From: Hondaea fermentalgiana | Lineage: Eukaryota > Sar > Bigyra > Thraustochytrida > Thraustochytriidae | Assembly (NCBI GenBank): GCA_014084085.1 | Contig: NPFB01000056.1 | Location: 1 to 49,314, forward strand | Length of the DNA: 49,314 nt | Direction of reading: 5' to 3' | Part shown: positions 12,118-37,323 of the stretch, piece by piece | Layout: every line of letters starts with the position of its first letter | Position numbering within the stretch: the first letter of the stretch is position 1 | Notes under the pieces: generated by a model | What the model saw: only the letters and a program-made list of their open reading frames with translations | Told to the model about the DNA's origin: nothing | Database searches by the model: none | Translations under genes and position numbers: made by a program

Positions 12118-14445
12118 TTAGAGACGCGAAACCCCGAGCTGTTCAACAAGGTACGCAAACTCGAAGGCCTTCTCACGAATGTACTTGTAGCGGTCAGACG
12201 CGGAAAAGTGGCCACTCGAAAGATCGACCTTGAGGAGCAAAAGATTGTCGTCGGTCTTCTTGTCGCGGAGATGAGCAACCCACTTGGCAGGCTCCCAGTA
12301 CGCGACGCGGGGGTCAAAGAGGCCAGCCGTGACGAGAATGGACGGGTAGTCCTGCGCAGTAACGTTGTTGATCGGTGAGTAGGAAAGCATGTACTCAAAG
12401 TACTTTTCCTCGTTCACGTTGCCCCACTCGGTAAACTCGCCCGTGGTGAGCGGGATCGAAGTGTCCGACATGGTCGCCACAACGTCCACGAAGGGAACGC
12501 CGGCAATGCAGCACTTGAACAGGTGCGGGGCCATGTTCAGGACGGCGCCCATGAGCAAGCCGCCTGCAGAACGACCCGTAATGCCGAGCTGCTCGGGCTC
12601 CGTATACTTTTCAGCAATGAGATGTTCCGCGCAAGAGATGAAGTCGTAAAAGGTGTTCTTCTTTTGCAGATATTTGCCATGGTCCTCATACCAAGGACGG
12701 CCCATCTCGCCGCCACCACGGATGTGTGCGACAACGCAGCAAATGCCATAATCCATGAGCGTGATGAAGGAAGGCGTAAAGTCTGGCTCGTTGCAAATGC
12801 CATAGCTGCCGTATCCGCTCAGATAGACGGGGCCCGGGGTGCGAGACTCGCGCGGGGCTTCAAAGCCGACATCCTTGCGGTACACCATAGACATGGGGAT
12901 CATCACGCCGTCGTGACCACGAGCCTCGAGGCGCTCGCAATGGTAAAGCTCCGGGTCATAGTTTGGCACTTCCTTGCGATGCACAAGACGCATGTCCTGG
13001 GTTTGCATGTCAATGTCGTATGTCGTTGGCGGCGTCACCATGGACTCGTACATGACACGCACGGTGTTCGTGTCAAAAACTCTGTTGACGCCGAGGCCAA
13101 CGCTGGAAATAGCGTCCGGAAAACCCTCGATCTTCTTGAGCGAGGGCTCGGCACCACTCTGGTCGAGAAGCCAGATGGCAGTGAACCCACCCTCGCGGCC
13201 TTCCACGATGAGATGGTTGGCGAAGGCAGTCGTATCCTCAATGTTGACGTCCGGGTCGTACGGGATGACGTCGGTCCAGTTCTCACGACGCGGGTCTTCG
13301 ACGGGTGCAGACATGAGCTTTTGGTTTTTGGCGCCATCCGCATTGGTGACAATGTAAAACTTGTCGCCACAATGGTCGAGCGAGTAGCGCAGCCCGTCGG
13401 TGCGAGCATGGACAAGCGTCATCTCGTCGCCAAACTGGGCAGTTTCGAGATCAAGGATGCGGATCTCGGTGGCCTCGGCGGTGCCGGACTCGCACATGAT
13501 GAAGCGTCCGCTGAGGGACTTGCCAAAACCCATCCAGTACTCTTCATTCGACTCCTCGTGCAAAAGTTTGTCCTCGGAAAAGTCAGTTCCCATGCGGTGC
13601 CAGTAGAGCTTGTACGGGCGGTGGGCCTCGTCGTGCACGGCATAGAAAACGCTCTCGTTGTCCTTGCCCCAGACGAGGCGGCCGGTGAGTTCCGGGAGCT
13701 TTTCGGGGATTGCGCGGCCAGTGCGTGTGTCGAAAAACTTGGCATTGTACGTTTCAAATCCGGTCTCATCGAGAGAGTACGCGAGAATCTGATGATCCGG
13801 AGACGGCGAGAGTCCGCCGAGGTCGCAGTGCTTTTTGCCCTTGGCCTCCTTGTTCATGTCAAGAAGGATCTCCTCGTTGGCGCTACCTACTTCTTCCTCC
13901 GACTTGGCGCGGCAGTAGATCCGGTACGACTTGCCCTTGATGGTGCGCGAGTAGTACCAGTAGTCGCCGTACGGGTAGGGCACCGAGTCTTCGGTTTCCT
14001 TGACATGGCTTAGCAAATCCTTGTAAAGCGCCTTGGACAGGGGCTTGAGATGGCGCGTTTGGTACTCGCAGTAGGCGTTTTCGCGGCGAAGGTGTGCGAT
14101 CACCTCGGGTGCCTTGCGATCGTCGTCGCGCATCCAAAAGTAGTCGTCCATGAGTTCCTTGGGCGGATCCATCGGGTTTGCGCCTCGGTTTTGGCCCTCA
14201 ACCTTGCCAACGAGCACCTTGGTCGGGCGTTTCTCCGCCACGGGCGGCACGCTCGCAGCCTTGTCGCTCAGCGCGCGCCCCCGCATCCGGCTCGCGGCCA
14301 AGAGTCCCAGCGCGGATACGGCTCCGAACGCGAGCTTTACGCCGCGCCCATCAAAGAAGCTCCCGCCTCCGCCGCCGCCGCTGCCGCCATTGCGGCCTCG
14401 CGTTTCCACGGCGCCGGTCGCCTCACCTGGCTCGAGGATCGCCAT
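12118..14445 (-). CDS. OPB: Oligopeptidase B (S9A serine peptidase), membrane-anchored
   Basis: Predicted 775-residue prolyl-oligopeptidase-family enzyme that cleaves peptides after basic residues. Conserved blocks include DDYFWMRDD in the N-terminal propeller region, YGSYGIC, and the nucleophile elbow GRSAGG with Ser626. The other triad members are Asp711 in GLFDPRV and His746 in SSGHFS. Acidic residues around the catalytic domain fit the Arg/Lys preference of oligopeptidase B, but specificity is inference. Unlike bacterial and trypanosomal forms, which start directly at the catalytic body, this one has about 85 extra N-terminal residues: a Gly-rich stretch, then a hydrophobic segment near 36-52 that may anchor it in a membrane or form part of an organelle-targeting signal. 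The glycine run is encoded by a GCC-repeat-like tract. ATG at 14445. Confidence 0.92.
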   Translation of the reverse strand: MAILEPGEATGAVETRGRNGGSGGGGGGSFFDGRGVKLAFGAVSALGLLAASRMRGRALSDKAASVPPVAEKRPTKVLVGKVEGQNRGANPMDPPKELMDDYFWMRDDDRKAPEVIAHLRRENAYCEYQTRHLKPLSKALYKDLLSHVKETEDSVPYPYGDYWYYSRTIKGKSYRIYCRAKSEEEVGSANEEILLDMNKEAKGKKHCDLGGLSPSPDHQILAYSLDETGFETYNAKFFDTRTGRAIPEKLPELTGRLVWGKDNESVFYAVHDEAHRPYKLYWHRMGTDFSEDKLLHEESNEEYWMGFGKSLSGRFIMCESGTAEATEIRILDLETAQFGDEMTLVHARTDGLRYSLDHCGDKFYIVTNADGAKNQKLMSAPVEDPRRENWTDVIPYDPDVNIEDTTAFANHLIVEGREGGFTAIWLLDQSGAEPSLKKIEGFPDAISSVGLGVNRVFDTNTVRVMYESMVTPPTTYDIDMQTQDMRLVHRKEVPNYDPELYHCERLEARGHDGVMIPMSMVYRKDVGFEAPRESRTPGPVYLSGYGSYGICNEPDFTPSFITLMDYGICCVVAHIRGGGEMGRPWYEDHGKYLQKKNTFYDFISCAEHLIAEKYTEPEQLGITGRSAGGLLMGAVLNMAPHLFKCCIAGVPFVDVVATMSDTSIPLTTGEFTEWGNVNEEKYFEYMLSYSPINNVTAQDYPSILVTAGLFDPRVAYWEPAKWVAHLRDKKTDDNLLLLKVDLSSGHFSASDRYKYIREKAFEFAYLVEQLGVSRL

Positions 14446-21468: not shown

Positions 21469-23232
21469 TCAGGAATCTCGCAGGAGCTGGAGTCGACCGC
21501 CAGCGAGAATGGCAGCGACGCGAGCATGAGCAGCGATCGGCGAGTGCACAAGTCCCAATGTCTCGATTAATTCTTGCTCATCATCACTTCGTAGAGGCAC
21601 CGAACTAGGCTCCGGGGCAGAGGCTCGAATGCGAGAGACATCCGCAGAGGCGAGGTCGATGGAGTCCTTGCCGCGACTAGCCCAGTCGTAAATGTACAGC
21701 TGCCCATCCTCTGCTGCAGCACAAATGCGCGAAGGCTTGTCTTGTGCGCAGCAGCTAAACGTGAAGCGAGTGCGATCGTTCGGACACGTGAGATCAACTC
21801 TTGCAAAAGTCATCTTTTCCCCTTGCGCAGGCCCCACCAGCAGTGAGATCTTAGCCGATTGCGCGCAAGCGACCAGCACAGGACGCCCTCCGCCCCATGC
21901 ACACGTGTCAAGTCCACTCACGGGTCCATCGAGCGTAAATTCAATCACAACTTGCGCTGAGCGCGCATCCCAAACAATAACCTTGTGGTCGCTGGACCCT
22001 GCTGCGACATAGGCATCGTCGCCCGCCACAAAGCACACCGCATTGACCTGCGCTTGCGGCCCGCGTAGCGTTTGGATCGCATTGCCAGTCTCAGCGCTGA
22101 AAATTCTTACCGTATGATCTCCGCCGCCCGTCACAATCCGATTTCCTGTCGAAGAAAACCGCACGCAGTTCACAGGCACCTTGCCGTGCGCACGTTTGAT
22201 ACGCGTCACGCGCTTGCCACTCGCAACATCCCACACAATCACCGTTCCGTCCAGACTTGAGCTGGCGAGATACTTGCCGTCGCGACTCCAATCGAGACCG
22301 AGAACAGCCTTTTTGTGCATCATAATGTCATTCTCTTGCTGATACACCAGGTCTTTGCGCAAGAATCCACGCGCAAGGTCATAAATCTCGATAAAACCGT
22401 CAGCGGTTCCCGTAGCGATACTCTTTCCATCCCACGAGATGCATGCCGCATTTAGTGTCACATCCTGGCCCATTGTAATCTTTGCATATGCCTCAAGCAA
22501 CCTTTTCTTGCCTCCAGACTCAAGCTGCTTTGCATCGATATCGTCATTGCCGACCCCGATAAGGCCTCGCTTTCGCGCGCGTTTTAGCTGTGCCGCAAGC
22601 GTCTCTTGGCTGCCAGAGAAGAGAGAAGGCGAACGACGTTTTCGTTTCTTGCTATCCTTGCGCTTGCGCCCCTCGTCGCCGTCCTTGTCATTGGCCTCAA
22701 TGCGGTCCAGCTCTCCTCGAAAAGCGAGCGCTTGGCCAAGCAGCTGAAGAAGCTGTGAGGGTCCCGCCTCCGTCAAACACGCGCACACACTCCGTGCTAG
22801 CGTACTCAGCGCGCGAGCGCGCTCCCCTTTCGCAAGCTGATCGCGTCGCCGTCGCGCCGCGCTGTGCCGATTGTGGACCAAATTTTGTAACTCGTCAAAA
22901 CGAGCCCCATTCTCTTTCTTCAAAGCTTCGAGATCTTCGCTGTCGCGCAAAATCTCCTTGGCTGCACCTTCCTCGCCACGTTCTACGAGGTCCGCGAGAA
23001 TCTCCTCGTACAGGCTCCACATGACACTACGAGGGAGCTGGCACTGATTGAGGCTGGAGAGTAAGGTGGCCCAATCCTTTGCTTCGATCAATGCGCCAAT
23101 CTTCGTCACGTCCGGGACCACATTCAAACGCACGTCTGCCTCGCTTTCAAGCGTGCGCGCTGTCTTCTCCAAGCCGCTCTCCACGAGGAATTGGAGCACC
23201 ACGCGGAGCACTTCGTTGGCGTCGACCTCCAT
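21469..23232 (-). CDS. SMU1: SMU1-like spliceosomal LisH-CTLH-WD40 protein
   Basis: Predicted 587 residues. An N-terminal LisH helix pair at about 6-38 (VLRVVLQFLVESGLEKTA) and a CTLH region at about 40-98 precede a basic linker with KRKDSKKRKRR near 190-205. The WD40 propeller covers about 265-587, including GTADGFIEIYDL and SSSLDGTVIVWDV. The diagnostic SMU1 stretch, with FLRKDLVYQ and RAHGKVPVNCVRF, matches the human order of blocks. SMU1 binds RED/IK and acts in spliceosome activation, with effects on short introns. The ATG at 23232 begins the conserved domain; the extra upstream frame starts only at a GTG. With the Tat-SF1-like gene this makes two splicing factors in a window whose genes are nearly intron-free. 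Confidence 0.92.
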   Translation of the reverse strand: MEVDANEVLRVVLQFLVESGLEKTARTLESEADVRLNVVPDVTKIGALIEAKDWATLLSSLNQCQLPRSVMWSLYEEILADLVERGEEGAAKEILRDSEDLEALKKENGARFDELQNLVHNRHSAARRRRDQLAKGERARALSTLARSVCACLTEAGPSQLLQLLGQALAFRGELDRIEANDKDGDEGRKRKDSKKRKRRSPSLFSGSQETLAAQLKRARKRGLIGVGNDDIDAKQLESGGKKRLLEAYAKITMGQDVTLNAACISWDGKSIATGTADGFIEIYDLARGFLRKDLVYQQENDIMMHKKAVLGLDWSRDGKYLASSSLDGTVIVWDVASGKRVTRIKRAHGKVPVNCVRFSSTGNRIVTGGGDHTVRIFSAETGNAIQTLRGPQAQVNAVCFVAGDDAYVAAGSSDHKVIVWDARSAQVVIEFTLDGPVSGLDTCAWGGGRPVLVACAQSAKISLLVGPAQGEKMTFARVDLTCPNDRTRFTFSCCAQDKPSRICAAAEDGQLYIYDWASRGKDSIDLASADVSRIRASAPEPSSVPLRSDDEQELIETLGLVHSPIAAHARVAAILAGGRLQLLRDS

Positions 23233-23606
23233 CCTGGCAGGTCGACTGATTGTGCAGCTCACTCGTCCGCCTCCTGTCCAGGCAGCGCCGCGGCCGATGG
23301 AGGGGCAGGTGGGCAGCCGACCGGCGGGCGAGCGAGCGGGCGAGCGAGCCGATGCACGGGACGCTCTTCTTTCTGCAACACAGCAGTCGAAGGTCTGATT
23401 GAGCTCATCGTCCCAGATGACGGCCACTCATACCTTCTATTGTTCAAGCTAGACCTTTGTGGACGTCAATATCATAAATACGCTTTGTTGACGCTCGGGG
23501 CATCTGATCCTGCTGTAGGCCTAGGCCTAGGTAGAGGCGACAAGGAAGGCCTAAAGTGAAAAACAATGAAGAACAAACATAAACATATTTTGGGGAGTTG
23601 CCTTCC
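23233..23606. other. Short spacer between giant-gene 3' end and SMU1 5' end
   Basis: Contains the SMU1 promoter and the 3' region of the giant membrane-protein gene. It has a nested AGGCCT palindrome cluster at about 23514-23553 and GAGC/GGGC repeats near 23328-23345. No gene seen. Confidence 0.6.
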
Positions 23607-26600
23607 TTACACATCAATGTTACGACCGCTGCCGCCAACAAAGCTCGGGTTACGACTGGAAATCTCCGAACTCTGGCTGCGATTGCCAGAGAAGAAGCTG
23701 CTTCCGAGAGAAGCGTCGTACTCGTCAATGCCACGGAATTCATTGTATCCATCGTCATCGTTTGCATCAACAAAGACGGCCGGCGCAACTTGGCCATCAC
23801 GTACCGACGGGTACGATGAGAACGAATTGTGCTGCGCCGCACGGATTCGCGAAACAGGACGCACGCTGTTGCGAAGAAGAAATGCAGAAGGCCAGCGACC
23901 CTCGACGAGCTTGGGACACACACCGTGCTTGTCAAGGCGGTTGCGAATCTGCCAGGTGCGGTCATTGAGCGCAGCGCGAATCATGCGGAAGACGTAGAAC
24001 TCGGTGCATAAGAGCATGAAGATGCCGCCAATCAAGACTGCTGAAGTGCCCTCGATGACTGCCACCACATCAAAGCAAAGGGCATCTTCCTCCGAGAGAC
24101 CGATAAATAAAAGTGGCTCCACAATGTACTCGCAAGCATCTCCCGTGCCAGACTCGACAATGAATTGTGCCAGCTGCGACACCTCGAGAGCAGCGGCAAC
24201 AATTGCAACAAGCAACACCAAAAGAGCCTCCCATGCAGCCACAATCTCCGCCGAGAAGAGTAGTGTGCGCTGCTCGCGCTCGTGCAGCGGCACATAGAGA
24301 AGAATAAGTAGCAGCAGACAGAGAACGATGGGCGCCACCAGCGTGAAGAGAACGTAGACAATCTGCAAGAAAGCAACCGCCAGCTGCGCCACAGCGTCAT
24401 CGCTCGGAACGCCTTCACTGATGGCCGTGGCGATGCCCACAGAGGTGTAGCTTCGGCGTTGCAGCTCGGGCTGCAAGACACCAATCATTGCGCCTGCGAT
24501 GCCCTTGTAGGTAAAGGAGATGAGGTTGAGGAAAGATCCCACGAGAATCAAAAGTCCCGAAATACACACGAGGCCACCTGCCGCGAGCTTAGCGCCTGGG
24601 CTAAAGCCATACAAAAGGTTGCGCTCGTCTGGAACGAGAAAGACGTGGCGGTGCAGCGCCTGCTTGGCGACGGTAATAGGCTCCGTATTGAGATCATTGA
24701 GTTTGTCCTCGAGATCCTCATCCTGCGCAATTACGCTGCGATGCTTGGCAATCATGTATTGATTCACCACGAGGGCGAGCATCGTTGCAATCACAAACAG
24801 GTAGATGCTGAGACCTGGCTCAACAATGACGTCCACAATAAAGACGTCGTCAGGCAAGAAGTCGAGCTGCGCAACATATGTCGAGGTAATGTAGAACCGA
24901 AAAGCCACCTGCAACATCACCAGAACGTAGGCATCAATGAGACTCCACTTGCCCAGCGAATCGAGGACCTCAAGCACGCTACCGCGACGTTTGTGGCTCA
25001 GTAGCGTCGGCGGCGTGAACCATGCCACCAGAAGCAGGACCGACTTGGTGTGCGGCCATGCGCCCGAGGCAACGAAGATGATGAGCGCCAGCGGGTATGT
25101 TCCGGCGTTCCACATATCATTGATCGAGGAGGCCAGCGTAAACTGAAGGATCGGCAGCGACTGCGTGGTGTCACCAGCGATGCTCATCGTGAGCTTGACC
25201 GTGGCGCCAACCGTTCCAATGTTTGCGGCGATAAAAAGTGCCACGGCAACGAGAATGAAAAAGGGCACCGCAAATTTGGGAACAGTCGAGACCAATGGGT
25301 GCCGAAACATTGACGAGAGACGTCGTTCCACAAGAAGAAGATCCTCACCCTTGCCGGAGAGATCGCCATTGCTCTTTTCTTGCAGGCGATTGAAAGCCAG
25401 AAACATGAGCTGATTCCGCCTGCGTGCGTGGAGGGGCATCAGAAAGAGACCCGCAGCAATGGCACCTCCCAAAATACCCACTCCGGCGTACCCCATAAGC
25501 GAGGCTGCATCTGTGAGCTCCTGCTTCTCGAGAGGATCAAAGGTGAACTCAATGCCCGTGCACTCGCGGCGTGCCGTCGCAATGGCCAGATCGACGTATT
25601 CCTGGGCATCGCTTTGGCCTGCAAGGGCGGTCACCGCCTGCACGATCGTGTTGAAACCCTCCGTGAGATCTGCGGACGCACGATCATCCGTGATGGCACC
25701 TGCATCCTGCAAGGCCTCCAGCATGGGCGACGTGCACTCGCCCTCGCAGCGAGCGGTCAGACGCACCTGCTCCGCGGTAAAGTTGAAATCTTGAATGCGC
25801 AGGCCCTCTTCGTCGAAGATGGACAAAAGGCAGGGAACGTTGCTCGGCTTGTAGTACAGATCGAGCAGATTGCCCAGACGCAAATCGAGAAACTGCTGAA
25901 TATCTATGCGGTGGAGCAGGTCCAGGCCAAAGTCCAAATTCGTCAAACGCATACCCATGCGAAGCTCGTTCTTCACAAAGCGTGTCTCTTCGAGGGCGCG
26001 GCTCTGGCCACGCACGAGCGAACGGTCTTGGTGTTCCTGCTCCTCTTCAAAGAAGGAGGCGGATGAAGAAACAGAGACATCGTTACCACCGCCACCACCG
26101 GCGCCAGGGGCCTCAAGAAGCTGGCGGCGTCGTCTGCCACCGCCGCTCTTTTCGACGAAAAGATCATCGAATTCGTACGTGAGCGCAAAAGAGACCTCCA
26201 GAGCGCCTCGCGTTGTGAACGCAGTTGTTGTTGTGTACGGGTTTCTATAGGTGTAGTCGGTCGTGTCAAAGAGGCGCAGTTTGGTTACTTCTGCGGCTCC
26301 CTCGGCGCCCGTACCAAGTCCCTCAAATTGAAAGTCGCCCACATACCACGTTGCCAGACCGAGACTGAGGCCATTATAGTACAGCTCGGTTGCGTTGAAG
26401 AGATCAAAGACACCCACTTTGACCTCGTTCACATATCGATCGAGCATCTTGTTGATATTGATGGAAGACACCGGGTTGAGCAGGTCAACTTGAATGAGCT
26501 CCTTCATCCTCGGCGGAAACGTCGAGGCGGAAAAGTTCATAAAGCGGCCCGTCACGTTGTAGTCCGGGTACTCGACGCCTGTACAGTCCTCCTTGAGCTT

Positions 26601-29600
26601 GGCCTCGCTCACAATCAAGTCAAGTTCTGCATTGATCAAATCGCGCACGGGACCCTGCGTAAAGTTGGGCACTTGCTTGCGGAAGACGGCGACCAAGAGC
26701 TCGACGAGAAGTTCCACGACATCCCTGGCTTCTTGCGAGAGGAAACTACCGTTGGTGGTAATGTCAGGTCCGTAGACGTCGGGAACGTACGCCTGGAATT
26801 GCGGGACAAAGAAACCTCCCTCGTACATGAGGCGCTTGATGGTGCAGTTGAAGGCATCGGCGCGAATACCAAACGAGTTGGTGGTCTCATTAAAGTAAAT
26901 GATCTCGCCCATTTGGACAAGAGACAAGTCTGTCTGGTTTACGGCCGCGGCGAAGAGCGCTTCGAGCGAGACATTGCCGAGCTGGAGGACAACGTCAACA
27001 TCGTCGTGGAGAACATCATCCGGCCCAGCCGAGGCGTTAAAGACGATAGCCGCTGTCTCGAGCTCAAAACCAAAGTTGAGTTCGATCAGATTGTCGCCCC
27101 ACTCAAAGGTGTGCTGTGTCGTGAACTTGGCCTCATCTCCCTCGTCGCTCGTGTACGGCTTGAGCACGTCCACGTTGGTGAGACGGTCGACGTTTCGCAC
27201 GACAATGTCCTTGAGCTTGAAGTTGAAACCTGGAATCAGACCTTCCGTGTCTGGCTCGTAGTTGTACGAGCTCATGTCCAGGCGGAGGGTGGTGCTGTTG
27301 TCCGCCTCAAGCTCAAAGACCTTGTACAGCGGGTCGAGGATCGACGGATAACGCGGATCTGCCACCGTGCGCGCCAGGTCCTGCAGCGTGAGCTGTAGCG
27401 ACTCCGCCGTGATGGAGGCCGAGAGTGCAGCAATGTATGCATTGTTCTCACCCGTCAAATCATACACGGGCTCATTGTTGACCACAGGGCGCTCCCACGA
27501 GGCCGGATCGTCGCCACGCGGGTTCGGCTGCTCCGTGGTTCCTTGGCGCAGAAAGTCGCTGATATCGCCAAGACTCGGTAGCGGAAGCGCCGAGGCAAAA
27601 ATCGTCCCGTTAAGCGGGTCCGTCTGGGTCAGACACTCGCTTCGCGTGTACGGAGGGTCGAACTCGGTGTTGAACAACTTGATCGTCTCGTTCTGGACGC
27701 GATCGATGACGTAGTTGAGAAAATACTCGATCGTGTCCTGGTACTCGTTGGTCTGAAGCTTTTGGTTCCAAGCCTCGAAGGCAGCGCCGATGCGATAGGC
27801 GGTGAATTCCTGCGGACCGTTCGGGAAAACAAAGCCATACGTGTAGTCGTTGACGTTGATCTCAAACTGGTCGAGCGAATGCGACTCGAGTACGGCCAGC
27901 AGACACTGAAGCGTGAGCAAATTGCCGATCTCGGACTGGAACACCTCGTTCTTGAGCACTTCAAGACCCAGGACGCCGGAAAATTCAAGCTGCAGCTCGA
28001 GACGGATGGCAAAGTCCTCGTCGGCCCACTTTTGTCCCGAAACAGAGGCATCGAGCGAGATAGGGAGCTCAAAGCCGAGGTAGCCAACTTGGGCAACGCT
28101 GCCGTTTTGAAGATTGACGGTGCCGTCGCCCCAGGTAAACTCAAAGTTCATCGCGTAGTCGTCCGTGGGCGCAGGCTGCAGCAAAAAGCGCCAGATCGAG
28201 TTGAGATCTGTGACGCGGAAGGGACCCACGTCGATGACAAAAATGTCTCCGCCGTATTGCTCCGAAACAAGAATCGTCGGGAAAGCCTCCCAGGTGCCAT
28301 CGGACGGGTTCTCAAAAATGTACGCCGAATCCGGATCATTGTTGATGGCGCCTTCTGGACGATCAAAGACCAGATATCGAAGCGTCGCCTGAATGAGCGC
28401 GTTGATGTCAACCGAGTTGCGGAGAATTGGGTCACCGCCAATGAGATTGTCGACGAGGTTCTTGACCGCATCGATCGCCAGCGTGTCGGTGAGGTTGAAG
28501 AAACGATCGTTGCCCGCGTACGTGAGGGGCACATACGATGGGCACACGGGCGGCGCGTCAACAAAGACAGTATTGTCGAGGTAATCATTGAGCTGCGGGC
28601 GGACGTAATTCTCCAGAATATACGGAAAGTCGTTGGCAAAGGTTGGCTTGAACAGCGTGTTGACCACGTCCATGACGTCGAGAATGAGGGCGTTGAGGTC
28701 GAAAAAGTTGACGACGGAGAAGTCCTCGAGCACGTCGGCCGAGCCTTGGAGACCGCTGACGCGGAAATGATCAAAGGTAGTGAAAGCACAGCGCAAGACG
28801 TCCATTCCTGCAAAATTCTCGCCCACGAGCTGTCCGACCTGGAGCGCAAAGAGTTTCTCCTGCTGGAAAAGCTGGTACGAGGTGATCTCCATCTCGAGGC
28901 CTTGGAAGCCGATGCCGGTGCCAAAGGTGAAACGTTCCAGTGTCGTTTTGCTTGTCTGCATCCAGTCTCCAGGCCGCATCTCAATGTCCCATGTCAGATC
29001 AAAGCGAAAGTTGGCAAGACGGAGATTGGTCACTGCAGTGTGTTCATATGGAGTGCCAAACTGGTCAGGATTGGCGAAACCGTTGTCGAAGATCTGAAAG
29101 TTGTCAAACTTGTTGATGTCGGTGAGCCGGAAGCCAATGAGCCGGAGCGAGTTGCGCGTGATGAGTTCACCAAATTCCACCATGGGATAGTCATCAAGCT
29201 CAAAGTACTCCTTCAGGTCCGCAATCTCGTAAACGCCCGTACCGTCGGTGAGAATGCTGACCACCTCGTTGATGGTGAGGTCGTTGTGGTAGCCCGTCTC
29301 GCTCGACTCTCCGCCAAGGTAGTCGTTGAGCCCAACGGAGATGGCCTCGAAAATTTCATTTGTGCGAAGGCTGGCCCAGGTGCTCGGGTCCTCGAGGTTC
29401 GGCAGGCGGCCCGGGTTGAGGGACTCGTCCTGCTCGAACTCCGTACGCCCACGAAGACCGGCAGCCTTGTAGCCGGCGACATCGTTTGAGATCTCCTCGA
29501 TGAACTCGTTGCCTGGACCCAGCGAGCCGTCGTCTGCGTACGCGGAGTTGCGAGCGAGGTTGCACATGATCTGTTCGAGAATGGCTTGGATAGTATTCAT

Positions 29601-30455
29601 GAGGATGTCGATAACGGGCTGGACGATCCAGCTTGGAATGTCACCGACGGAGGTGTTCTCCAGACTAAAGCCGTCCGAGATGGAGAATCTGCAACCAGAC
29701 TCGTCGTCCAGAAAGTCGAAGCGAGTAGGCGGCGAATAGTCAAAGTCTGGCGAGAAGAAGTTCATCGCAAAGGAGGCCCCGATGCCTCCCTCCTCGGCGC
29801 TCATCTCATTCTTGCGAAGGTAGACCTCAGTATTTCCTGTCACGGTAAAGTAAAAATTGCCAAAAATCGGCACTGGAATGCCGAGACGCATATCTTCGAA
29901 GCGAAGGCGCCCGAAGCAGTTGACCTTGAGGTCATTGATGCCTGCGTTGACGCGCTGCACATCCTCGCCGCTGACCCGGCTCAGCGCTCCAAGCGAGAGG
30001 TCCACATAGTCGACCTGAGCGTTGTCGCACCTTAGGTCATAGAGCCAGAAATCACCGTCGGACACGATATCGCCGATTCTCCGCGTAAAGGTCAACCACA
30101 AGTAGGAGATCTCCACTTCGGTGTTTTTGACCCAGTTCGGCATATCCTCTGCGGACGCGTAGCATGAGTCGCTGTAGCTCGGGCATGGGCCCGGGTTCGT
30201 GCCGAACTGGATGCCGGCGAGCGCCGCATTGAGCTTTACGAAATCCTGTTGTACCACGAGTTTGCGTCTCTCCTTGGCCGGGTCGCTCCTCGCCGCGGCC
30301 TCCTCAGCCGGGTCCTCGTAGCGCACGCGGACCTCGGCCTGGGACGTATCGAATTCCAGGGCTTGCGTCTGCGCCGCCAGCGTTGTAGCCAGCACCGCGA
30401 CGACGGCCAGCACGACCCGTCCCGCGGCGCTCGCGACGCTCTTCACGCGTGCCAT
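23607..30455 (-). CDS. Giant membrane protein: tandem ectodomain repeats fused to a PqiA/LetA-like domain
   Basis: Predicted 2,282 residues. A signal peptide ends near residue 32. Residues 33-1650 form a large lumenal or extracellular part made of about five similar units. Each shows beta-rich stretches, a Cys-hydrophobic block (around residues 180, 556, 851, 1204 and 1542), then amphipathic helices, often followed by a Cys motif such as DCTGVEY (1290) and ECTGIEF (1631). This pattern suggests TULIP/BPI-like lipid-binding modules, which is inference. Residues 1651-2160 are multi-pass (about ten segments) and resemble PqiA/LetA: NDMWNAGTYPLALIIF, LGKWSLIDAYV at about 1834-1844, and a second diverged half at about 1955-2160. 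Bacterial PqiA/LetA is the inner-membrane partner of MCE lipid-transfer proteins. The Cys ribbon of bacterial PqiA is absent. A Ser-rich cytosolic tail ends the chain. Likely role: lipid handling at a membrane; location unknown. Confidence 0.8.
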   Translation of the reverse strand: MARVKSVASAAGRVVLAVVAVLATTLAAQTQALEFDTSQAEVRVRYEDPAEEAAARSDPAKERRKLVVQQDFVKLNAALAGIQFGTNPGPCPSYSDSCYASAEDMPNWVKNTEVEISYLWLTFTRRIGDIVSDGDFWLYDLRCDNAQVDYVDLSLGALSRVSGEDVQRVNAGINDLKVNCFGRLRFEDMRLGIPVPIFGNFYFTVTGNTEVYLRKNEMSAEEGGIGASFAMNFFSPDFDYSPPTRFDFLDDESGCRFSISDGFSLENTSVGDIPSWIVQPVIDILMNTIQAILEQIMCNLARNSAYADDGSLGPGNEFIEEISNDVAGYKAAGLRGRTEFEQDESLNPGRLPNLEDPSTWASLRTNEIFEAISVGLNDYLGGESSETGYHNDLTINEVVSILTDGTGVYEIADLKEYFELDDYPMVEFGELITRNSLRLIGFRLTDINKFDNFQIFDNGFANPDQFGTPYEHTAVTNLRLANFRFDLTWDIEMRPGDWMQTSKTTLERFTFGTGIGFQGLEMEITSYQLFQQEKLFALQVGQLVGENFAGMDVLRCAFTTFDHFRVSGLQGSADVLEDFSVVNFFDLNALILDVMDVVNTLFKPTFANDFPYILENYVRPQLNDYLDNTVFVDAPPVCPSYVPLTYAGNDRFFNLTDTLAIDAVKNLVDNLIGGDPILRNSVDINALIQATLRYLVFDRPEGAINNDPDSAYIFENPSDGTWEAFPTILVSEQYGGDIFVIDVGPFRVTDLNSIWRFLLQPAPTDDYAMNFEFTWGDGTVNLQNGSVAQVGYLGFELPISLDASVSGQKWADEDFAIRLELQLEFSGVLGLEVLKNEVFQSEIGNLLTLQCLLAVLESHSLDQFEINVNDYTYGFVFPNGPQEFTAYRIGAAFEAWNQKLQTNEYQDTIEYFLNYVIDRVQNETIKLFNTEFDPPYTRSECLTQTDPLNGTIFASALPLPSLGDISDFLRQGTTEQPNPRGDDPASWERPVVNNEPVYDLTGENNAYIAALSASITAESLQLTLQDLARTVADPRYPSILDPLYKVFELEADNSTTLRLDMSSYNYEPDTEGLIPGFNFKLKDIVVRNVDRLTNVDVLKPYTSDEGDEAKFTTQHTFEWGDNLIELNFGFELETAAIVFNASAGPDDVLHDDVDVVLQLGNVSLEALFAAAVNQTDLSLVQMGEIIYFNETTNSFGIRADAFNCTIKRLMYEGGFFVPQFQAYVPDVYGPDITTNGSFLSQEARDVVELLVELLVAVFRKQVPNFTQGPVRDLINAELDLIVSEAKLKEDCTGVEYPDYNVTGRFMNFSASTFPPRMKELIQVDLLNPVSSININKMLDRYVNEVKVGVFDLFNATELYYNGLSLGLATWYVGDFQFEGLGTGAEGAAEVTKLRLFDTTDYTYRNPYTTTTAFTTRGALEVSFALTYEFDDLFVEKSGGGRRRRQLLEAPGAGGGGGNDVSVSSSASFFEEEQEHQDRSLVRGQSRALEETRFVKNELRMGMRLTNLDFGLDLLHRIDIQQFLDLRLGNLLDLYYKPSNVPCLLSIFDEEGLRIQDFNFTAEQVRLTARCEGECTSPMLEALQDAGAITDDRASADLTEGFNTIVQAVTALAGQSDAQEYVDLAIATARRECTGIEFTFDPLEKQELTDAASLMGYAGVGILGGAIAAGLFLMPLHARRRNQLMFLAFNRLQEKSNGDLSGKGEDLLLVERRLSSMFRHPLVSTVPKFAVPFFILVAVALFIAANIGTVGATVKLTMSIAGDTTQSLPILQFTLASSINDMWNAGTYPLALIIFVASGAWPHTKSVLLLVAWFTPPTLLSHKRRGSVLEVLDSLGKWSLIDAYVLVMLQVAFRFYITSTYVAQLDFLPDDVFIVDVIVEPGLSIYLFVIATMLALVVNQYMIAKHRSVIAQDEDLEDKLNDLNTEPITVAKQALHRHVFLVPDERNLLYGFSPGAKLAAGGLVCISGLLILVGSFLNLISFTYKGIAGAMIGVLQPELQRRSYTSVGIATAISEGVPSDDAVAQLAVAFLQIVYVLFTLVAPIVLCLLLLILLYVPLHEREQRTLLFSAEIVAAWEALLVLLVAIVAAALEVSQLAQFIVESGTGDACEYIVEPLLFIGLSEEDALCFDVVAVIEGTSAVLIGGIFMLLCTEFYVFRMIRAALNDRTWQIRNRLDKHGVCPKLVEGRWPSAFLLRNSVRPVSRIRAAQHNSFSSYPSVRDGQVAPAVFVDANDDDGYNEFRGIDEYDASLGSSFFSGNRSQSSEISSRNPSFVGGSGRNIDV

Positions 30456-30787: not shown

Positions 30788-31636
30788 CACGCCATTCATG
30801 GCGTGCGTGCCAAGGGACCACATGGATGCCACGACCACATGGATGGACTTGCGCTCTCTACTCCTCCGTCGTCCATTTCCTGTCCACTGCACAGCGCGCA
30901 CGACACGGGCGCCCCTCGTCGTCACCGGTAGCAGGACTGCCGCTGCCGCAAGCAAACTCAGAAGAGCAGGCTGGCGGTGCTCGGAGGAGTAGAGTAGTAA
31001 ACCACAACCAGCCGCGGCTGCGGCTTTTTGGGTCTCTCTCTCTCCAGGGCCGGCAGCGGATCTCCAGTATCGCGCGATCTCGAGATCGCTGCTGGTCCAG
31101 CTCCGCCATCGTAGACACCAACGTGAACACCCGCTTTCCGCGCTTAGGGGTCGCGCGGCACGCGCTGCTGTTAAACTACAGCAAAAGGCGGCGAGTCCAT
31201 TGGCCGCCGCCGTCCGTCCATCTATCCATCCAGCCATCCATGCAGCCATCCATAAAGACATCATGATGCATTGTCGAGCACCGTCTGCCCGCTCGGATCG
31301 TCGGCGCCGGGTTTCGGGTTCGCGCCGCGGATTCGGACCGGCAGCGGCCACTGCGAGCGGCCGCAGTCGCGTACTACGGTACCGGCGGAAGCGGAGGATC
31401 CCCCGGGAGGGCAGCGCGCGCAGGGACGGCGAATCTGTTTATCCGATGGAGGGACACATCGTGCACGGTAACGTCCCGGACACCAGAAAAGAGATTGGGG
31501 TATCCGGGAGGGGGAAAGACCTTGATTGGGTCTGGCCGCGTTTTGGGGGACCGCAGACGCGCGTGTAGAAAGAATACGCTTTGCAGGGAAGGAGAGGCCG
31601 GCTCGCGTGCAAACGGAAGCGCGAGGGCTCGCGCGG

Positions 31637-31710
31637 TCGCTCGGTCGCTCGCTCACTCGGTCGCTTATTCGTTCGTTCGTTCGTCCGTTCATTCGTTCGT
31701 TCGTCCTCGC
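31637..31710. repeat. (TCGC/TCGT)n array
   Basis: Degenerate tetranucleotide run changing from TCGC/TCGG to TCGT/TTCG, about 200 bp upstream of the U-box protein start. Confidence 0.9.
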
Positions 31711-31899
31711 GCGAGAGACGCGCTTCGCGTGAAGCGTAGACGTCGCGAGCCTCGTTTCCTTTTTCCGCGGGACGCGGAAAGATTAAAGATCTGCTGCGAC
31801 GTCTTCGAGCAGAACAAGTCGAAGTCTGCAGGGCGTTCGCCTTCGCCTTCGCGTGCGCCTTCGCCCTCGCCTTTGCATCGCCCGCTTGCCTGCAGCACG

Positions 31900-33765
31900 A
31901 TGAGCGACAAGGACAATGAGCTGAACAACTGGACGTGCCCAATCCTACAAACCATCATGCGAGACCCCGTCGTCGCTGCAGATGGACACACGTATGAGCG
32001 AGCAGCGATGGAAGAATGGTTCCGGAGCTGCAATGACGCTCAAGTGACCTCGCCCATGACGGGTTTTCCCCTGCCAAGTAGGATCCTCTTTGCCAATCAC
32101 AACCTGCGCAAGTCTATTGCGGACTATATCGCGCGAAATCCGGATGCCGAAAAAGACATGACGACCAAGGAGGAAATCGCAGCTCTCGTGGAACGCTTCC
32201 GCTCGGGCGGCGAAGCACGCCCCGACTCACCACCCCTCATTGACCTGCGCTCTGACGCAGAAATCGCCGCTGCGAACGCAGCAGCAGCCAAAGAAGCTTC
32301 AGCGGCATCAACACCCGTCGATACCTCGAACGGCGTGCAGGTTCATATGGTTCGGCCGCCGCAAACTTCAGGCGCTTACGCGGCGAGCGCGAGCGCAGCT
32401 CCCCCCACTGCTGCAGCTGTCGCAACTCGTGCCAGCTACACGCTCGCACCGCCGTCGACTCTACTTATTGGGTCGCGAATCTCTCATCATAGCCAGTCAA
32501 ATGAACTTGACCTCTGGGAGGCCGATGACAGAGGTTTCTTCAGGTCTCGCGCTCGAACGAGAATGAGCAATAACGCAACGTTTACATGCGCTGCCATGCT
32601 CCGGGTGCCCAGCAGTGATGTAGACCGCAACGTGGAGCGACAATTTGTCGTCACAGGCGGCTCTTCAGGCGCTTTGTCCGTTTGGGCTTATGCACACCGA
32701 GATGGTCCAAAACTCGATTGCGTTCAGACAAACGCATCGCTCGCCCGCGCTCACTCAGAGGGCATCACCTGCGTTTCGAGCTGGGCGCACAGCGTTTCCA
32801 TTGACGAGCCCGCAAGTCGACCCATTCTGGTCAGCGGCTCGCGCGATCGCTCGGTGAGAATTTGGCGCGCGGCGACTGCAGCACCCTCAGCGGGTGGATC
32901 TTGGAATTTCGACCTCGCCGCCAATCTCGAGAAACACACTGATTTCGTAACTTGCTGTGAAATTGAAGTGGGATCTGGAACGCTCGTCACGGGTGGCGGG
33001 GACTGGAAGACGTGTTTGTGGGACCTCCACCGTCTCGATGCGGGATGTATTAGCGAGTTTGAGGCTCACTCGTACGCCGTGCGATGCTGCGCGTGGTCCA
33101 CCTCGGGTCAGTATGCGGTGAACGGATACGAGCATGGACATCGTGTAGGCGCTTCCGGACTGGCTGCGGCTGCAGGAGCCTGTTTTGCCTCTGGTGGCGA
33201 TGACGAAATGGTCTACGTGACGGACCCGCGCGCAAGCGGCAATGGTAGGGTCGCGCAACTCTCCACGGGCGCTGCCGTGCTAAGCATGTGCTGGGGCCCC
33301 ACCGACGATGCTCCGGGCGCGCTGCCTTGGCTCGCTGCGGGCGGTGGGGTACCTCTCGATTCCTTCAACGCAAGTTCAGATAATATTGGCGGGTGGGTTC
33401 GCGTCTGGGATCCTCGCATGTGGAAACCTGTCGGCGATTGCTGTAGTTTTGGAGCGACCCCCATTCAAGACCCTTCTGGCGCTGTCTACGATGCGGCTGC
33501 CAGTTCTCGAACCCTTCAGGTGCACCGCGCGTCGAGCTCGGAGTGGGAATCGGACAAATCTCGCGAGGCGCACTCTACAATGGTCTCCGGCCTTTCCCCC
33601 GTTCGGGTTGCCGACGGCACAATCGCTCTGGCAAGTGTCGGTGACGACCACTTTCTGCGTCTTTGGAAACTTCCTCGCGGTGTAGGGGACAGCATGCTCA
33701 AGCCTGCACTATTGCAGGCGATCCGAACCAACTCCTCACCGTGCTACGTCGGGCTCTTGGCTTAA
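31900..33765 (+). CDS. U-box / WD40 protein, putative E3 ubiquitin ligase
   Basis: Predicted 621 residues. The U-box is at the extreme N-terminus (about 9-80): WTCPILQTIMRDPVV, then DGHTYERAAMEEWF and HNLRKSIADYI, the regular order for E2 binding without zinc. A low-complexity Ala-rich linker (about 115-170) leads to a WD40 propeller over about 175-615, including VSGSRDRSVRIWR, VTGGGDWKTCLWDL and ASVGDDHFLRLWKL. The propeller presumably selects substrates. Prp19 also joins a U-box and WD40 repeats, but its coiled-coil and Prp19 regions are not seen. WDSUB1 has the opposite order with a SAM domain. I therefore give no symbol. The frame is open for 135 codons upstream but only from a TTG; the ATG at 31900 opens the conserved region. 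Its 3' end converges on the sulfatase gene. Confidence 0.88.
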   Translation: MSDKDNELNNWTCPILQTIMRDPVVAADGHTYERAAMEEWFRSCNDAQVTSPMTGFPLPSRILFANHNLRKSIADYIARNPDAEKDMTTKEEIAALVERFRSGGEARPDSPPLIDLRSDAEIAAANAAAAKEASAASTPVDTSNGVQVHMVRPPQTSGAYAASASAAPPTAAAVATRASYTLAPPSTLLIGSRISHHSQSNELDLWEADDRGFFRSRARTRMSNNATFTCAAMLRVPSSDVDRNVERQFVVTGGSSGALSVWAYAHRDGPKLDCVQTNASLARAHSEGITCVSSWAHSVSIDEPASRPILVSGSRDRSVRIWRAATAAPSAGGSWNFDLAANLEKHTDFVTCCEIEVGSGTLVTGGGDWKTCLWDLHRLDAGCISEFEAHSYAVRCCAWSTSGQYAVNGYEHGHRVGASGLAAAAGACFASGGDDEMVYVTDPRASGNGRVAQLSTGAAVLSMCWGPTDDAPGALPWLAAGGGVPLDSFNASSDNIGGWVRVWDPRMWKPVGDCCSFGATPIQDPSGAVYDAAASSRTLQVHRASSSEWESDKSREAHSTMVSGLSPVRVADGTIALASVGDDHFLRLWKLPRGVGDSMLKPALLQAIRTNSSPCYVGLLA

Positions 33766-34002: not shown

Positions 34003-37000
34003 TTACAAATTGTTCTCATCAAACACAAAGGGAAAACGAAAGAGATCGTCGCGACCAATTTGCGTGTGTTTAACGCGCAAATATGGCTCCCCCACAGGCA
34101 GCGACGAGTTTGCCAGCCACTGTCGACATTGTACGAGCTGCTGTCGACGCTTTGCTCGCGCTTTACGCGATGGCGTGTACGCTTGATCGTAGTTATCCGA
34201 GTGTAAATAGTCGAAAAGAGCCTGTGTCATGCGCTTTGCTTCTTCAGGAAACTCCCCGAGAACGCTCGTCATCTCGGCTGGATCGGCCTCGAGGTCGTAT
34301 AGCTCGATGGGGTCCAGCTTCCGAGGAATCGCCTGGCGCGGATCACGAGGTTCTGCATAAAGCTTGAAACGTCCTCTTCGAACTGCGAAGCGCGCACTGT
34401 GGGCCATGCAGTCCGCTCCATGAGCCCATCCTCGAAACTCAAAGAGAAGACTACGATCCTCATTGGCCGAGAAAAGGTCGACACCTTCAACGGCGCTTGT
34501 TAAGCTGGCATTGAGTGAAATGCCCGCATACCGGGCCACCGTTGGCAAAATGTCTGCCGTCATTCCAGGTCGGGACCACAGCGTATTTGCGGCAAGCCCA
34601 GGGCCGCGCATCACAAGCGGGACACGAAGCCCTCCTTCGTACAAGGAGCGCTTGCCGCCACGAAAAGGCCCTGCAGACCCTTGGCTCGCAAAGTAGACAC
34701 CCGCATTTTCAGGACCGTTGTCCGATAGGTAGACAATGAGTACATCATCGCGCAAGCCCTGGCTGTCTATCCAGTCGACAAGACGCCCAACTTGCTGGTC
34801 ATGGTCCTTCAAGAGAGCGCGGTAAATTTGCAGTGGCAAGTGTGGGTCTGCTGCCTCATTTGGAAATCGTTCCTTCTCAACAAGGGAAGCAAATTGTCGT
34901 TCTGGAAACGGCAGCTTGGCAAACCCGAGGCCAAGTTCACGTGCCTGCTGGCCGTCTTCAGCCAGGTTAAGCGGCGCATGCGCGTTCTGAAACCAGAAAT
35001 TGACGAAGAACCTTTCCTTGCGTTCGACACGTGCACGTAAGAACTCAATTGTCTGCGTGACCACATCGCGTTGAATATGCGAAGCAAAGTACAAATCGTT
35101 GTGTTCGTATGTGGCCGAGCTCGGTAACACTCCTTTAGAAGCCGAATACACTTTGGCTTCGTCGATGCCATACGATGGATGCAGAGGCGACCGATGGGCC
35201 TCGGTTTTGGGCAAGTTGCCAAGGTGCCACTTGCCAAAGTGACCCGTGACAAAGCCTGCCTCGCGGAAAAGCCTACTAAGATACACGTTGGGACGCGCAC
35301 GTGGGACAATCGGGTCCTGCAATGGTGCTTGCGCATTCGTGGGCGGTTCATCCGTGGCTGCGCCCAGATATGGCGTCACGCCAAAATATTCGCTCTCTGC
35401 TGCCGAAGTTGCTGTCTGCCAGTGCATCGCCACAGCGCTGTGAAACGGGTATCGACCCGTCATTAGCGAGGCGCGCGTTGGCGAGCAAACCGCCGCGTTG
35501 GCATAAAAGTTGGAAAACACCACCCCCTGACTCGCGAGTCGATCCAAGGATGGAGTGTTTGGTCGGAAAACAGAACCTCCAGCGCGGTTCATGTAGCTGT
35601 CATCGTTGTCGTGAGGCTCACTTTGTACAGGGGCATTGAAAGCGGACAGGTCACCAAATCCCAAGTCGTCCGCAAGCATGATGATGATACCACGTACGTT
35701 TTTCTGTGCAGCCCTCGCTTTGTTTTCTTGGGCGGAAGACATTTTTTGTCGTGTGGAAAAGGCAGCCTCAAAGTGCTCCCGACAGCTACCTCGCACGCTC
35801 GCGCGTGGTGTTGTATCAGGGTACATTTCCGCGTGCCATGTTTGGAGACCTGCAATGTGATGAGCGGCTATACTTTGCAGTTTGGACACCTTGACGAGAT
35901 TGGCTCGCTCGTAGTGGCCCTGGTGTGCCGCACCTTCGTCATGAACTCGGTAAAGCTCCACATGCAATGGGTTGGATACATTGCCGAGTTCGCTCGGCTC
36001 GAGGAAAAGTTTGTATTTGTGGTCATACATGATGGCGAGGCGCGGCGCCACCTCGATGCAATGGCTGTCCGGCGTGGGCTCTCGCCACTCCCAAACGAGC
36101 GGGGCACGCCGTAAAGGGAGAGATCCTGGCCCTAAAAAATAAGCCGAGTGGTCGATGCCGTCTCGTTCGGCCGATCCCTTTAACGTCGGTATTCCGAAAA
36201 AGGACACACATGTGGGTGCCCAATCAAGAGCGCTCACGAGATGCGGTCGGCTCTGAGGCGTGTGAGTGACCACGGATGGGCTCGTCCAGACCAGAAATGG
36301 CACGCGAATACCGCCATCGTAAAGCGAACGTTTTTTGCCTCGATAGTGCGTGCTTCCAGCGGCGTGGCCATAGATTTCGGGAGTCTCGGGTCCATTTGTG
36401 CTCGAAACCGCGGCCAGAAACGGGAGGTTTGGCGCCGTTGCAAAGAGTGTGTCGATTACATTCCCAACGAGCTCGCGCTCTCTGCGTTTGTTCGCTCGAT
36501 GAATCATGCGAGGACATGATTTGTATCGATGAGGATGCGTTGTGCGTCTGCGAATGTCGCGGCAGGTGGGTGAATCGTCCGAGACGCCAGGCTCGCGCTC
36601 GAGCAGCTCGCGCGCCCAAGATCCGGATTCGAAGGCGAGATCAACGGGCGGGAGCCACACTTGTGCATAGAATCGTTGATTCGCATCTACGCAGCGCTTA
36701 ATAAAGTGCTGTGCTGCGCGCACAGCTTGCTGCGCGTCTGCCGTGATGAGATGGTCGTCGGTGTCCGCGGCAATGTCAGAAGGGAGATCCCAAGTTCCAA
36801 AGTGGCCAACTTTGACATTGGCGGCGCGCAGTGTTTTCAGTAGCGCGTTGTGATCCGCTGGTATAAGCGAGTAGTCAGAAATATCTTGGGCGTGAAGCGT
36901 ACCATGGCGGGAGGGATGCTGGCCCGTGATCCAGGCAAGCTGGGATGGAACCGTGTCGGGGCTGGCGACACGGAAACTCGTATACGACGTTGGTCGTGAA

Positions 37001-37323
37001 CTTGTGATGTTTTTCCCTCGTGGAATTGCAGCGGGGCCCTCGGCCGCAAGGTCACCGGTGCCAACGTCTGGTAAGAGGACTAAAAGCACGCCGTCCAAGG
37101 TTTGGCTTGACTGAGAGGATGGAGCTTGGGCGTCGTGCCCTTGCAATTCAGAAAAGATTCCAACGAGGGTAATGTTGTCAAGCGCTTGGGCTTGTCGCCA
37201 CCGAATGAGACAATCAATCAGCACGACGACCGCAAAGCCGAGGAGGATGGTCACGCACGTGCGGCGTTTGACGCGTTTTCCACCCGCATCCTTTTCGAGT
37301 GGCGCGACTTTGGCGAGGCGCAT
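34003..37323 (-). CDS. Double sulfatase: pseudo-sulfatase plus active-type sulfatase
   Basis: Predicted 1,106-residue type II membrane or secreted protein with a hydrophobic anchor at about 22-41. Two alkaline-phosphatase-fold sulfatase units follow. The second (about 540-1040) keeps the catalytic set: metal ligands Asp552-Asp553, the formylglycine motif CSPTR with Cys613, Lys698 and His700 in FGKWHLG, Asp868-Asn869 in SDNG, and Lys891. The first (about 76-500) keeps the scaffold and the GKKRSLYDGGIRVP block but has Thr124 where Cys should be, Gln for the motif Arg, PDVG for DDLG, FGTWDL for FGKWHL and STNG for SDNG, so it should be inactive. Such enzymes hydrolyse sulfate esters in glycans after FGE/SUMF1 converts Cys to formylglycine. 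The substrate is unknown; sulfated wall or scale polysaccharide is a guess. ATG at 37323. Confidence 0.92.
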   Translation of the reverse strand: MRLAKVAPLEKDAGGKRVKRRTCVTILLGFAVVVLIDCLIRWRQAQALDNITLVGIFSELQGHDAQAPSSQSSQTLDGVLLVLLPDVGTGDLAAEGPAAIPRGKNITSSRPTSYTSFRVASPDTVPSQLAWITGQHPSRHGTLHAQDISDYSLIPADHNALLKTLRAANVKVGHFGTWDLPSDIAADTDDHLITADAQQAVRAAQHFIKRCVDANQRFYAQVWLPPVDLAFESGSWARELLEREPGVSDDSPTCRDIRRRTTHPHRYKSCPRMIHRANKRRERELVGNVIDTLFATAPNLPFLAAVSSTNGPETPEIYGHAAGSTHYRGKKRSLYDGGIRVPFLVWTSPSVVTHTPQSRPHLVSALDWAPTCVSFFGIPTLKGSAERDGIDHSAYFLGPGSLPLRRAPLVWEWREPTPDSHCIEVAPRLAIMYDHKYKLFLEPSELGNVSNPLHVELYRVHDEGAAHQGHYERANLVKVSKLQSIAAHHIAGLQTWHAEMYPDTTPRASVRGSCREHFEAAFSTRQKMSSAQENKARAAQKNVRGIIIMLADDLGFGDLSAFNAPVQSEPHDNDDSYMNRAGGSVFRPNTPSLDRLASQGVVFSNFYANAAVCSPTRASLMTGRYPFHSAVAMHWQTATSAAESEYFGVTPYLGAATDEPPTNAQAPLQDPIVPRARPNVYLSRLFREAGFVTGHFGKWHLGNLPKTEAHRSPLHPSYGIDEAKVYSASKGVLPSSATYEHNDLYFASHIQRDVVTQTIEFLRARVERKERFFVNFWFQNAHAPLNLAEDGQQARELGLGFAKLPFPERQFASLVEKERFPNEAADPHLPLQIYRALLKDHDQQVGRLVDWIDSQGLRDDVLIVYLSDNGPENAGVYFASQGSAGPFRGGKRSLYEGGLRVPLVMRGPGLAANTLWSRPGMTADILPTVARYAGISLNASLTSAVEGVDLFSANEDRSLLFEFRGWAHGADCMAHSARFAVRRGRFKLYAEPRDPRQAIPRKLDPIELYDLEADPAEMTSVLGEFPEEAKRMTQALFDYLHSDNYDQAYTPSRKARAKRRQQLVQCRQWLANSSLPVGEPYLRVKHTQIGRDDLFRFPFVFDENNL

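What the first reader, a model, noticed from the sequence alone, without database searches (positions are those of the whole stretch)
23607..30455. Possible one-chain eukaryotic lipid conduit: tandem ectodomain fused to a PqiA/LetA-like membrane domain
Seen: a signal peptide, a 1,600-residue repeat ectodomain and a C-terminal multi-pass domain in one uninterrupted frame. The membrane part carries PqiA-like blocks (NDMWNAGTYPLALIIF; LGKWSLIDAYV). Known: bacterial PqiA and LetA pair with separate MCE proteins (PqiB, LetB) that form lipid tunnels. Inference: here the tunnel partner has been replaced by a different, fused, repeat ectodomain, giving a self-contained lipid-transfer machine at a eukaryotic membrane. 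I know of no described function for such a protein.
Basis: partly seen in the sequence, partly recalled or inferred. Interest (0 to 1): 0.88.

Follow-up and report, generated by a model that had tools for sequence, protein, structure and literature searches.

The report
Protist tandem-TULIP lipid relay on LetA
In a thraustochytrid (a marine single-celled protist), one 2,282-residue protein joins a membrane domain related to the bacterial lipid transporter LetA to a repeat arm that is predicted to lie outside the membrane as five lipid-binding tubes in a row, so it would likely hand lipids between a membrane and something beyond it in a single molecule, a job that bacteria split among separate proteins.

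The parts
23607..30455 (-). whole open frame, 2,282 aa, tandem-TULIP-LetA protein
   Evidence: Pfam PqiA E 1.7e-9
30360..30455 (-). putative signal peptide (residues 1-32, hydrophobic 10-28)
   Evidence: hydropathy; not tested with a signal-peptide predictor
29463..30266 (-). N-terminal cap (residues 64-331), BPI N-domain-like
   Evidence: cap HMM; the cap region of the family profile hits BPI E 7e-7; own model of this half is poor
28470..29453 (-). ectodomain unit A1 (residues 335-662)
   Evidence: unit HMM; A1-A2 similarity E 3.8e-17
27573..28514 (-). ectodomain unit B1 (residues 648-961)
   Evidence: unit HMM; B1-B2 E 2.1e-6
27480..27572 (-). linker between the two A-B pairs (residues 962-992)
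   Evidence: unit boundaries; the middle gap exceeds the two gaps inside pairs in 26 of 28 four-unit chains
26481..27479 (-). ectodomain unit A2 (residues 993-1325), TULIP fold in the model
   Evidence: model, (from residue 1005; its first 37 residues are of low confidence); Foldseek TULIP hits
25491..26552 (-). ectodomain unit B2 (residues 1302-1655), next to the membrane, TULIP fold in the model
26049..26144 (-). low-confidence basic loop in B2 (residues 1438-1469, holds RRRRQLL at 1441)
   Evidence: pLDDT under 50; position
25374..25508 (-). linker transmembrane helix TM0 (residues 1650-1694)
   Evidence: model helix 646-690; hydropathy peak 1657-1675
24699..25286 (-). first 4-TM PqiA/LetA module (residues 1724-1919)
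24912..25145 (-). Pfam PqiA match (residues 1771-1848)
25044..25055 (-). P-x-x-K motif (1801-1804)
   Evidence: P..K in 65 of 65 first modules
24933..24950 (-). K-W-S-L-I-D motif (1836-1841)
   Evidence: [KR]W[SA]xxD in 62 of 65 first modules
23934..24599 (-). second 4-TM module (residues 1953-2174), degenerate motif
   Evidence: model; 0 of 65 second modules hold [KR]W[SA]xxD
23610..23618 (-). C-terminal tripeptide I-D-V (2280-2282), clade-specific tail
   Evidence: pattern [IV][DENQ][VI] at the end of 10 of 11 thraustochytrid-type chains (list)

Best explanation
This gene encodes one chain in which a LetA/PqiA-type membrane domain is fused to a repeat arm predicted to be five TULIP (BPI-like) lipid-binding units, and it likely works as a membrane-anchored lipid relay. 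SHOWN by sequence: the frame, the PqiA match, the repeats in A-B-A-B order, the absence of CxxC zinc ribbons, and relatives with shorter and longer arrays. PREDICTED by the model: the two modelled units have the TULIP fold, and the membrane part is one linker helix plus two four-helix modules with short strands between the helices. INFERRED: the arm lies outside the cell or in the lumen (hydrophobic N-terminus, 17 N-glycosylation sequons in the arm and 1 after it); by counting helices, the short strands of both modules then lie on the arm's side, the side on which LetA meets its tunnel partner LetB (recalled). The LetA-like domain would load or unload single lipids at the outer leaflet, and the TULIP units, each a tube with a hydrophobic inside, would pass them along the arm to or from a partner membrane, particle or wall. 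The number of A-B pairs would set the reach. Whether lipids slide through touching tubes or are handed over by moving arms, and in which direction, is open.
Confidence: 0.62

Rival explanations
1. Lipid scavenger or receptor: the arm binds lipids or lipid-bearing particles from bacteria or sea water, as LBP and BPI do, and the LetA-like domain brings them in. The arm is a grabber, not a bridge to a second membrane.
For: Nearest solved relatives of the cap are BPI and LBP; thraustochytrids feed by absorption (recalled); extracellular topology is inferred from the hydrophobic N-terminus and sequons.
Against: Does not by itself explain arrays that grow by whole A-B pairs up to eight units. It is a special case of the best explanation with a set direction, so it is not excluded.
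Confidence: 0.22
2. The TULIP arm is only a tether or structural stalk and the membrane domain has lost transport, as its second module has lost the conserved motif and the zinc ribbons are gone.
For: No CxxC in the chain, against four in LetA; [KR]W[SA]xxD is absent from 65 of 65 second modules.
Against: The first module keeps P..K in 65 of 65 and [KR]W[SA]xxD in 62 of 65, which points to a conserved function. In bacteria too mainly one of the two halves holds such motifs (W[SA]xx[DE] in 30 of 30 usable second halves and 5 of 32 first halves; the stricter [KR]W[SA]xxD in 16 of those 30 and 0 of 32).
Confidence: 0.1
3. A simple gene-prediction or assembly artefact that joins a bacterial pqiA gene to a eukaryotic repeat gene.
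For: PqiA is mostly bacterial (recalled; PMC5507252 says usually prokaryotic).
Against: One frame without a break; 55 of 81 database proteins have a cap, units and both modules; five homologues are from transcriptomes by their source names (MMETSP: P0017, P0018, P0031, P0063, P0064); and eight further own-genome frames match PqiA, four of them with units.
Confidence: 0.01

Closest known systems
CETP/BPI proteins of protists and amoebae with a C-terminal PqiA domain (one sentence in Wong and Levine 2017, PMC5507252)
   Same: BPI-type domain(s) outside, PqiA domain at the C-terminus, 9-12 TM helices (9 here by the model)
   Different: That text (section 2.1 read whole, the rest by word search) names no tandem arrays, stramenopiles or diatoms in what I saw; the window chain has five units in a cap plus two A-B pairs, relatives have three to nine
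LetAB / PqiABC of Escherichia coli
   Same: LetA-like double 4-TM domain; a long outside arm of another fold; arm length varies by repeats (three MCE rings in PqiB, seven in LetB, per PMC12436622 passages)
   Different: Arm is predicted TULIP instead of MCE, fused in one chain, not known to be a hexamer; zinc ribbons missing; canonical motif in the first and not in the second module
BPI / CETP / LBP
   Same: TULIP fold in model; the family cap hits the BPI N-terminal domain
   Different: Secreted, two TULIP domains, no membrane domain
Bridge-like lipid transfer proteins (VPS13, ATG2; recalled, and named in an abstract listed, PMC7613979)
   Same: idea of a long hydrophobic arm between membranes
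   Different: Different fold (repeating beta-groove), not fused to a LetA-type domain (recalled)

Membership tests
PqiA domain family (PF04403) | profile match above the curated cut-off | tested here: met
   38.2 bits, cut-off 23.8
LetA/PqiA transporters (NCBIfam subfamily/equivalog) | score above the curated cut-off of the whole-protein models | tested here: not met
   25 against 260.35 bits and 29.3 against 562 bits: a relative, not a LetA/PqiA orthologue
LetA/PqiA transporters (NCBIfam subfamily/equivalog) | two modules of four helices in the LetA fold | tested here: met
LetA/PqiA transporters (NCBIfam subfamily/equivalog) | two CxxC-CxxC zinc ribbons | tested here: not met
   LetA has CxxC at 31, 51, 233, 248; the window chain has none
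LetA/PqiA transporters (NCBIfam subfamily/equivalog) | an MCE-domain partner in the same genome | tested here: not met
   no MlaD/MCE domain (PF02470) found, 0 candidates; control rings in 4 of 14 genomes. Six-frame search of a 238-contig assembly: a gene cut by introns or missing from it could escape
TULIP superfamily (BPI/CETP, SMP) | TULIP fold | tested here: met
   16 of 16 Foldseek rows after LetA; a prediction, for units A2 and B2 only
TULIP superfamily (BPI/CETP, SMP) | sequence profile match to BPI/LBP | tested here: inconclusive
   family profiles E 7e-7 and 1e-5 to BPI through the cap; none for the window chain alone, for ten thraustochytrid-type chains or for 14 repeat units
TULIP superfamily (BPI/CETP, SMP) | binds a lipid in a tubular cavity | not testable with these tools
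   no coordinates and no assay
MCE tunnel proteins (PqiB, LetB) | MCE domains | tested here: not met
   no MCE family in the Pfam scan of the chain up to E 10
PqiA-anchored CETP/BPI proteins (Wong and Levine 2017) | CETP/BPI ectodomain with C-terminal PqiA domain | tested here: met
   with the limits given for TULIP above; their figure and list of members were not seen

The most novel reading that the evidence does not exclude
A third architecture of lipid bridge: tandem TULIP tubes, grown by whole A-B pairs to three, five or nine units on a LetA-like pump, form one continuous extracellular or lumenal lipid duct whose reach is written in the gene, rebuilding in a single eukaryotic chain, without MCE rings or zinc ribbons, what bacteria do with LetAB.
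Probability: 0.33. Interest if true: 0.88.

Novelty: new variant of a known kind. Interest (0 to 1): 0.67.

Why it matters
If true, the same transport problem has been solved twice with the same motor and different arms: MCE rings in bacteria, TULIP tubes in protists. That makes an open question testable, namely whether TULIPs act as tunnels or shuttles (stated as unknown in PMC5507252): chains with three, five or nine fixed tubes on a membrane motor are a natural experiment in arm length. The family is found in thraustochytrids, several named diatoms and Trichomonas, so it bears on how marine protists may exchange lipids with their surroundings.

Tried and rejected
MCE ectodomain: rejected, no MCE match in the chain or found in the genome. 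Swapped order of the two LetA halves: the first module scores better with bacterial second halves in 56 of 65 and the second with first halves in 51 of 65, but the window's own second module leans to second halves too (13.1 against 7.7 bits), and the tree joins both eukaryotic modules (98/99) against both bacterial halves (with a long-branch warning); separate duplications with a reversed division of labour fit better than a swap. The bacterial set was the 30 best-scoring loci plus LetA and PqiA; two second halves (L110, L119) were empty extracts and were dropped. Unit-only PDB sequence search: nothing. Profile of the ten thraustochytrid-type chains (A1) against PDB: LetA at E 0.98, no BPI. 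Single-sequence PDB search: best E 0.23, a CRISPR protein, chance. Own-genome searches for Pfam BPI families: no match, but no control rang, so uninformative. Model of residues 30-1120: too poor to use on its own. Viral contigs: 7 stretches fitted the pattern, none confirmed. Pfam for the four own-genome PqiA chains without units: PqiA only. Strand amphipathicity: mixed. Literature: ten searches; only PMC5507252 held both 'PqiA' and 'TULIP domain'. Seen of papers: PMC5507252 section 2.1 and passages; passages of PMC12436622 and PMC12800296; a word search of PMC6791001 without a match; the rest only as listings. Preprints and most subscription papers are not in that library, so absence from print is not shown.

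Full report
What is there. The window is part of contig C190 of a 36-Mb, 238-contig genome. Two paralogues in it, on C26 and C87, were returned as P0074 and P0077 on contigs of the same lengths under NCBI names of Hondaea fermentalgiana, a thraustochytrid stramenopile. The frame 23607-30455(-) is intact, 2,282 aa, with an in-frame stop 60 nt upstream.

Ectodomain. Profile self-comparison shows repeats about 290-320 positions apart. Iterated unit models over 87 proteins (81 database proteins, the window's included, and six own-genome chains) place in the window chain a cap at 64-331 and units at 335-662, 648-961, 993-1325 and 1302-1655. After iteration the A and B models find the same units, so all units are one family; the cap is not detectably related to them, much as the two halves of BPI were seen as a repeat only from the structure (PMC5507252). 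Fold: only LetA and CETP (9.1e-4) pass Foldseek E 0.001; BPI follows at 1.6e-3, and rows 2-17 are 16 of 16 TULIP-type proteins. The poor model of residues 30-1120 (pLDDT 46.9) gives LBP, CETP and BPI first at E 1.5e-6 to 2.2e-5, which I use only as support. By sequence, a 66-row family profile hits BPI at E 7.1e-7 and LBP at 0.0037 and a 27-row profile hits BPI at 1.2e-5, in both cases through the cap; the window row of the first profile starts at residue 1005, so its cap columns come from homologues, and the window's cap is tied to them by the cap model. LBP_BPI_CETP is reached at E 0.05 or better by 3 of 27 relatives, best E 7e-5; the one score shown, P0073, is under the curated cut-off (18.4 against 28.8). 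A profile of ten thraustochytrid-type chains finds no BPI, and one of 14 own-genome units finds nothing. So TULIP is supported for the family cap by sequence, and for units A2 and B2 by predicted fold only.

Array grammar. Of 81 database proteins, 55 have a cap (in some only part of it) and both membrane modules. They have 2 units (25), 4 units (28, plus P0017, counted as 5 by the script because one unit was cut in two), or 8 units (1, P0081, 3,634 aa). Many are close relatives, so these are not independent events. In 18 four-unit chains outside the thraustochytrid-type group, unit 1 resembles unit 3 (E 5.5e-63) and unit 2 resembles unit 4 (1.1e-73), far more than 1-2 (0.0035), 1-4 (0.0087), 2-3 (2.2e-9) or 3-4 (7.8e-5). 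In 10 thraustochytrid-type chains 1-3 is again the best (5.5e-18), while 2-4 (1.5e-6) is weaker than 3-4 (7.3e-9). In 26 cap-plus-two chains (C113 included, P0068 left out) the first unit matches position 1 best (5e-99) and the second matches position 4 best (4e-112). The gap between units 2 and 3 exceeds those of 1-2 and 3-4 in 26 of 28 (all). So arrays most simply grow by insertion of an A-B pair between a fixed outer A and a fixed juxtamembrane B. The Trichomonas chain P0072 (1,074 aa) has one detected unit after its N-terminal region, near the size of an ordinary two-domain BPI.

Distribution. All three protein searches scored only the candidates sharing most words, so this is a sample. 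The own genome has 14 PqiA matches in nine open frames: the window chain, C26, C87a (cut by the contig end), C87b and C113 with units; C182, C159, C14 and C189 without. No MCE domain was found.

Conserved sites. In the first module P..K is kept in 65 of 65 and [KR]W[SA]xxD in 62 of 65; in the second 12 and 0 of 65; the looser W[SA]xx[DE] in 62 and 9 of 65. PqiA was found in 84 of 150 sampled bacterial genomes. From the 30 best loci plus LetA and PqiA, the motif half is the second: P..K in 30 of 30 usable second halves and 10 of 32 first halves, W[SA]xx[DE] in 30 of 30 and 5 of 32, the strict [KR]W[SA]xxD in 16 of the 30 and 0 of 32. The tree favours separate duplications over a swap, with a long-branch warning.

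How it likely works. Shown: architecture and conservation. Predicted: TULIP units and LetA fold. Inferred: an outer or lumenal arm (hydrophobic N-terminus; 17 sequons in the arm and 1 after it), single lipids loaded or unloaded by the LetA-like domain, and hand-over along the arm. If a BPI-like unit is about 6-7 nm long (from a recalled 13-14 nm for two-domain BPI), five units could reach about 30 nm; this is an estimate, not a result. Direction, ligand, partner, oligomeric state and membrane are unknown.

Prior knowledge. Wong and Levine 2017 (PMC5507252; [quoted passage not shown] The words 'diatom' and 'stramenopile' and 'multiple TULIP', 'more than two' and 'chain of' do not occur in that text. 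The partner facts on PqiB and LetB are from passages of PMC12436622. The fusion is therefore known in principle; the tandem arrays, pair grammar, zinc-ribbon loss and model were not met in ten library searches.

Noticed in passing
23610-23618 and homologues: 10 of 11 thraustochytrid-type chains end in [IV][DENQ][VI] (I-D-V here; P0075 does not); none of the 76 other chains listed does, though some are truncated. It may be a sorting or PDZ-type tail (recalled idea).
   Followed up: partly
L013:3823-6930 (C159) and L016:2479-5664 (C189): Two own-genome PqiA chains carry an extra N-terminal block of about four hydrophobic segments; in C159 it holds a GLW loop reminiscent of claudins (motif recalled). 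Pfam finds only PqiA.
   Followed up: partly
26049-26144 and the last unit of P0077, P0078, P0079, P0080: RR.?L dibasic sites recur in ectodomains: 37 (overlapping ones counted) in 57 chains against 16.1 expected by shuffling, in 20 of 57 chains; P0002 and P0074 have none. Possible processing sites.
   Followed up: partly
window 24699-25286 against bacterial pqiA: The canonical PqiA motif half is first in the eukaryotic family and second in bacteria, with a tree that favours separate duplications.
   Followed up: partly
P0078, P0080: Proteins filed under the dinoflagellate Durusdinium trenchii are 42% and 34% identical to Hondaea C26; contamination or transfer not tested.
   Followed up: no
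P0003: Full-length relative with no Pfam family up to E 1 and very long branches in the module tree.
   Followed up: no
window 21469-23427(-), 31495-33765(+), 34003-37323(-), 45375-46508(+), 12118-14445(-), 10415-11602(-), 6187-10011(+), 4018-5331(-): Neighbours look like ordinary eukaryotic genes: WD40 protein, U-box/WD40 protein, sulfatase, actin, prolyl oligopeptidase, RRM/GYF protein, WW-domain protein, BART-domain protein (two further frames scanned gave no family or a weak beta-helix); no evident link to the finding.
   Followed up: partly
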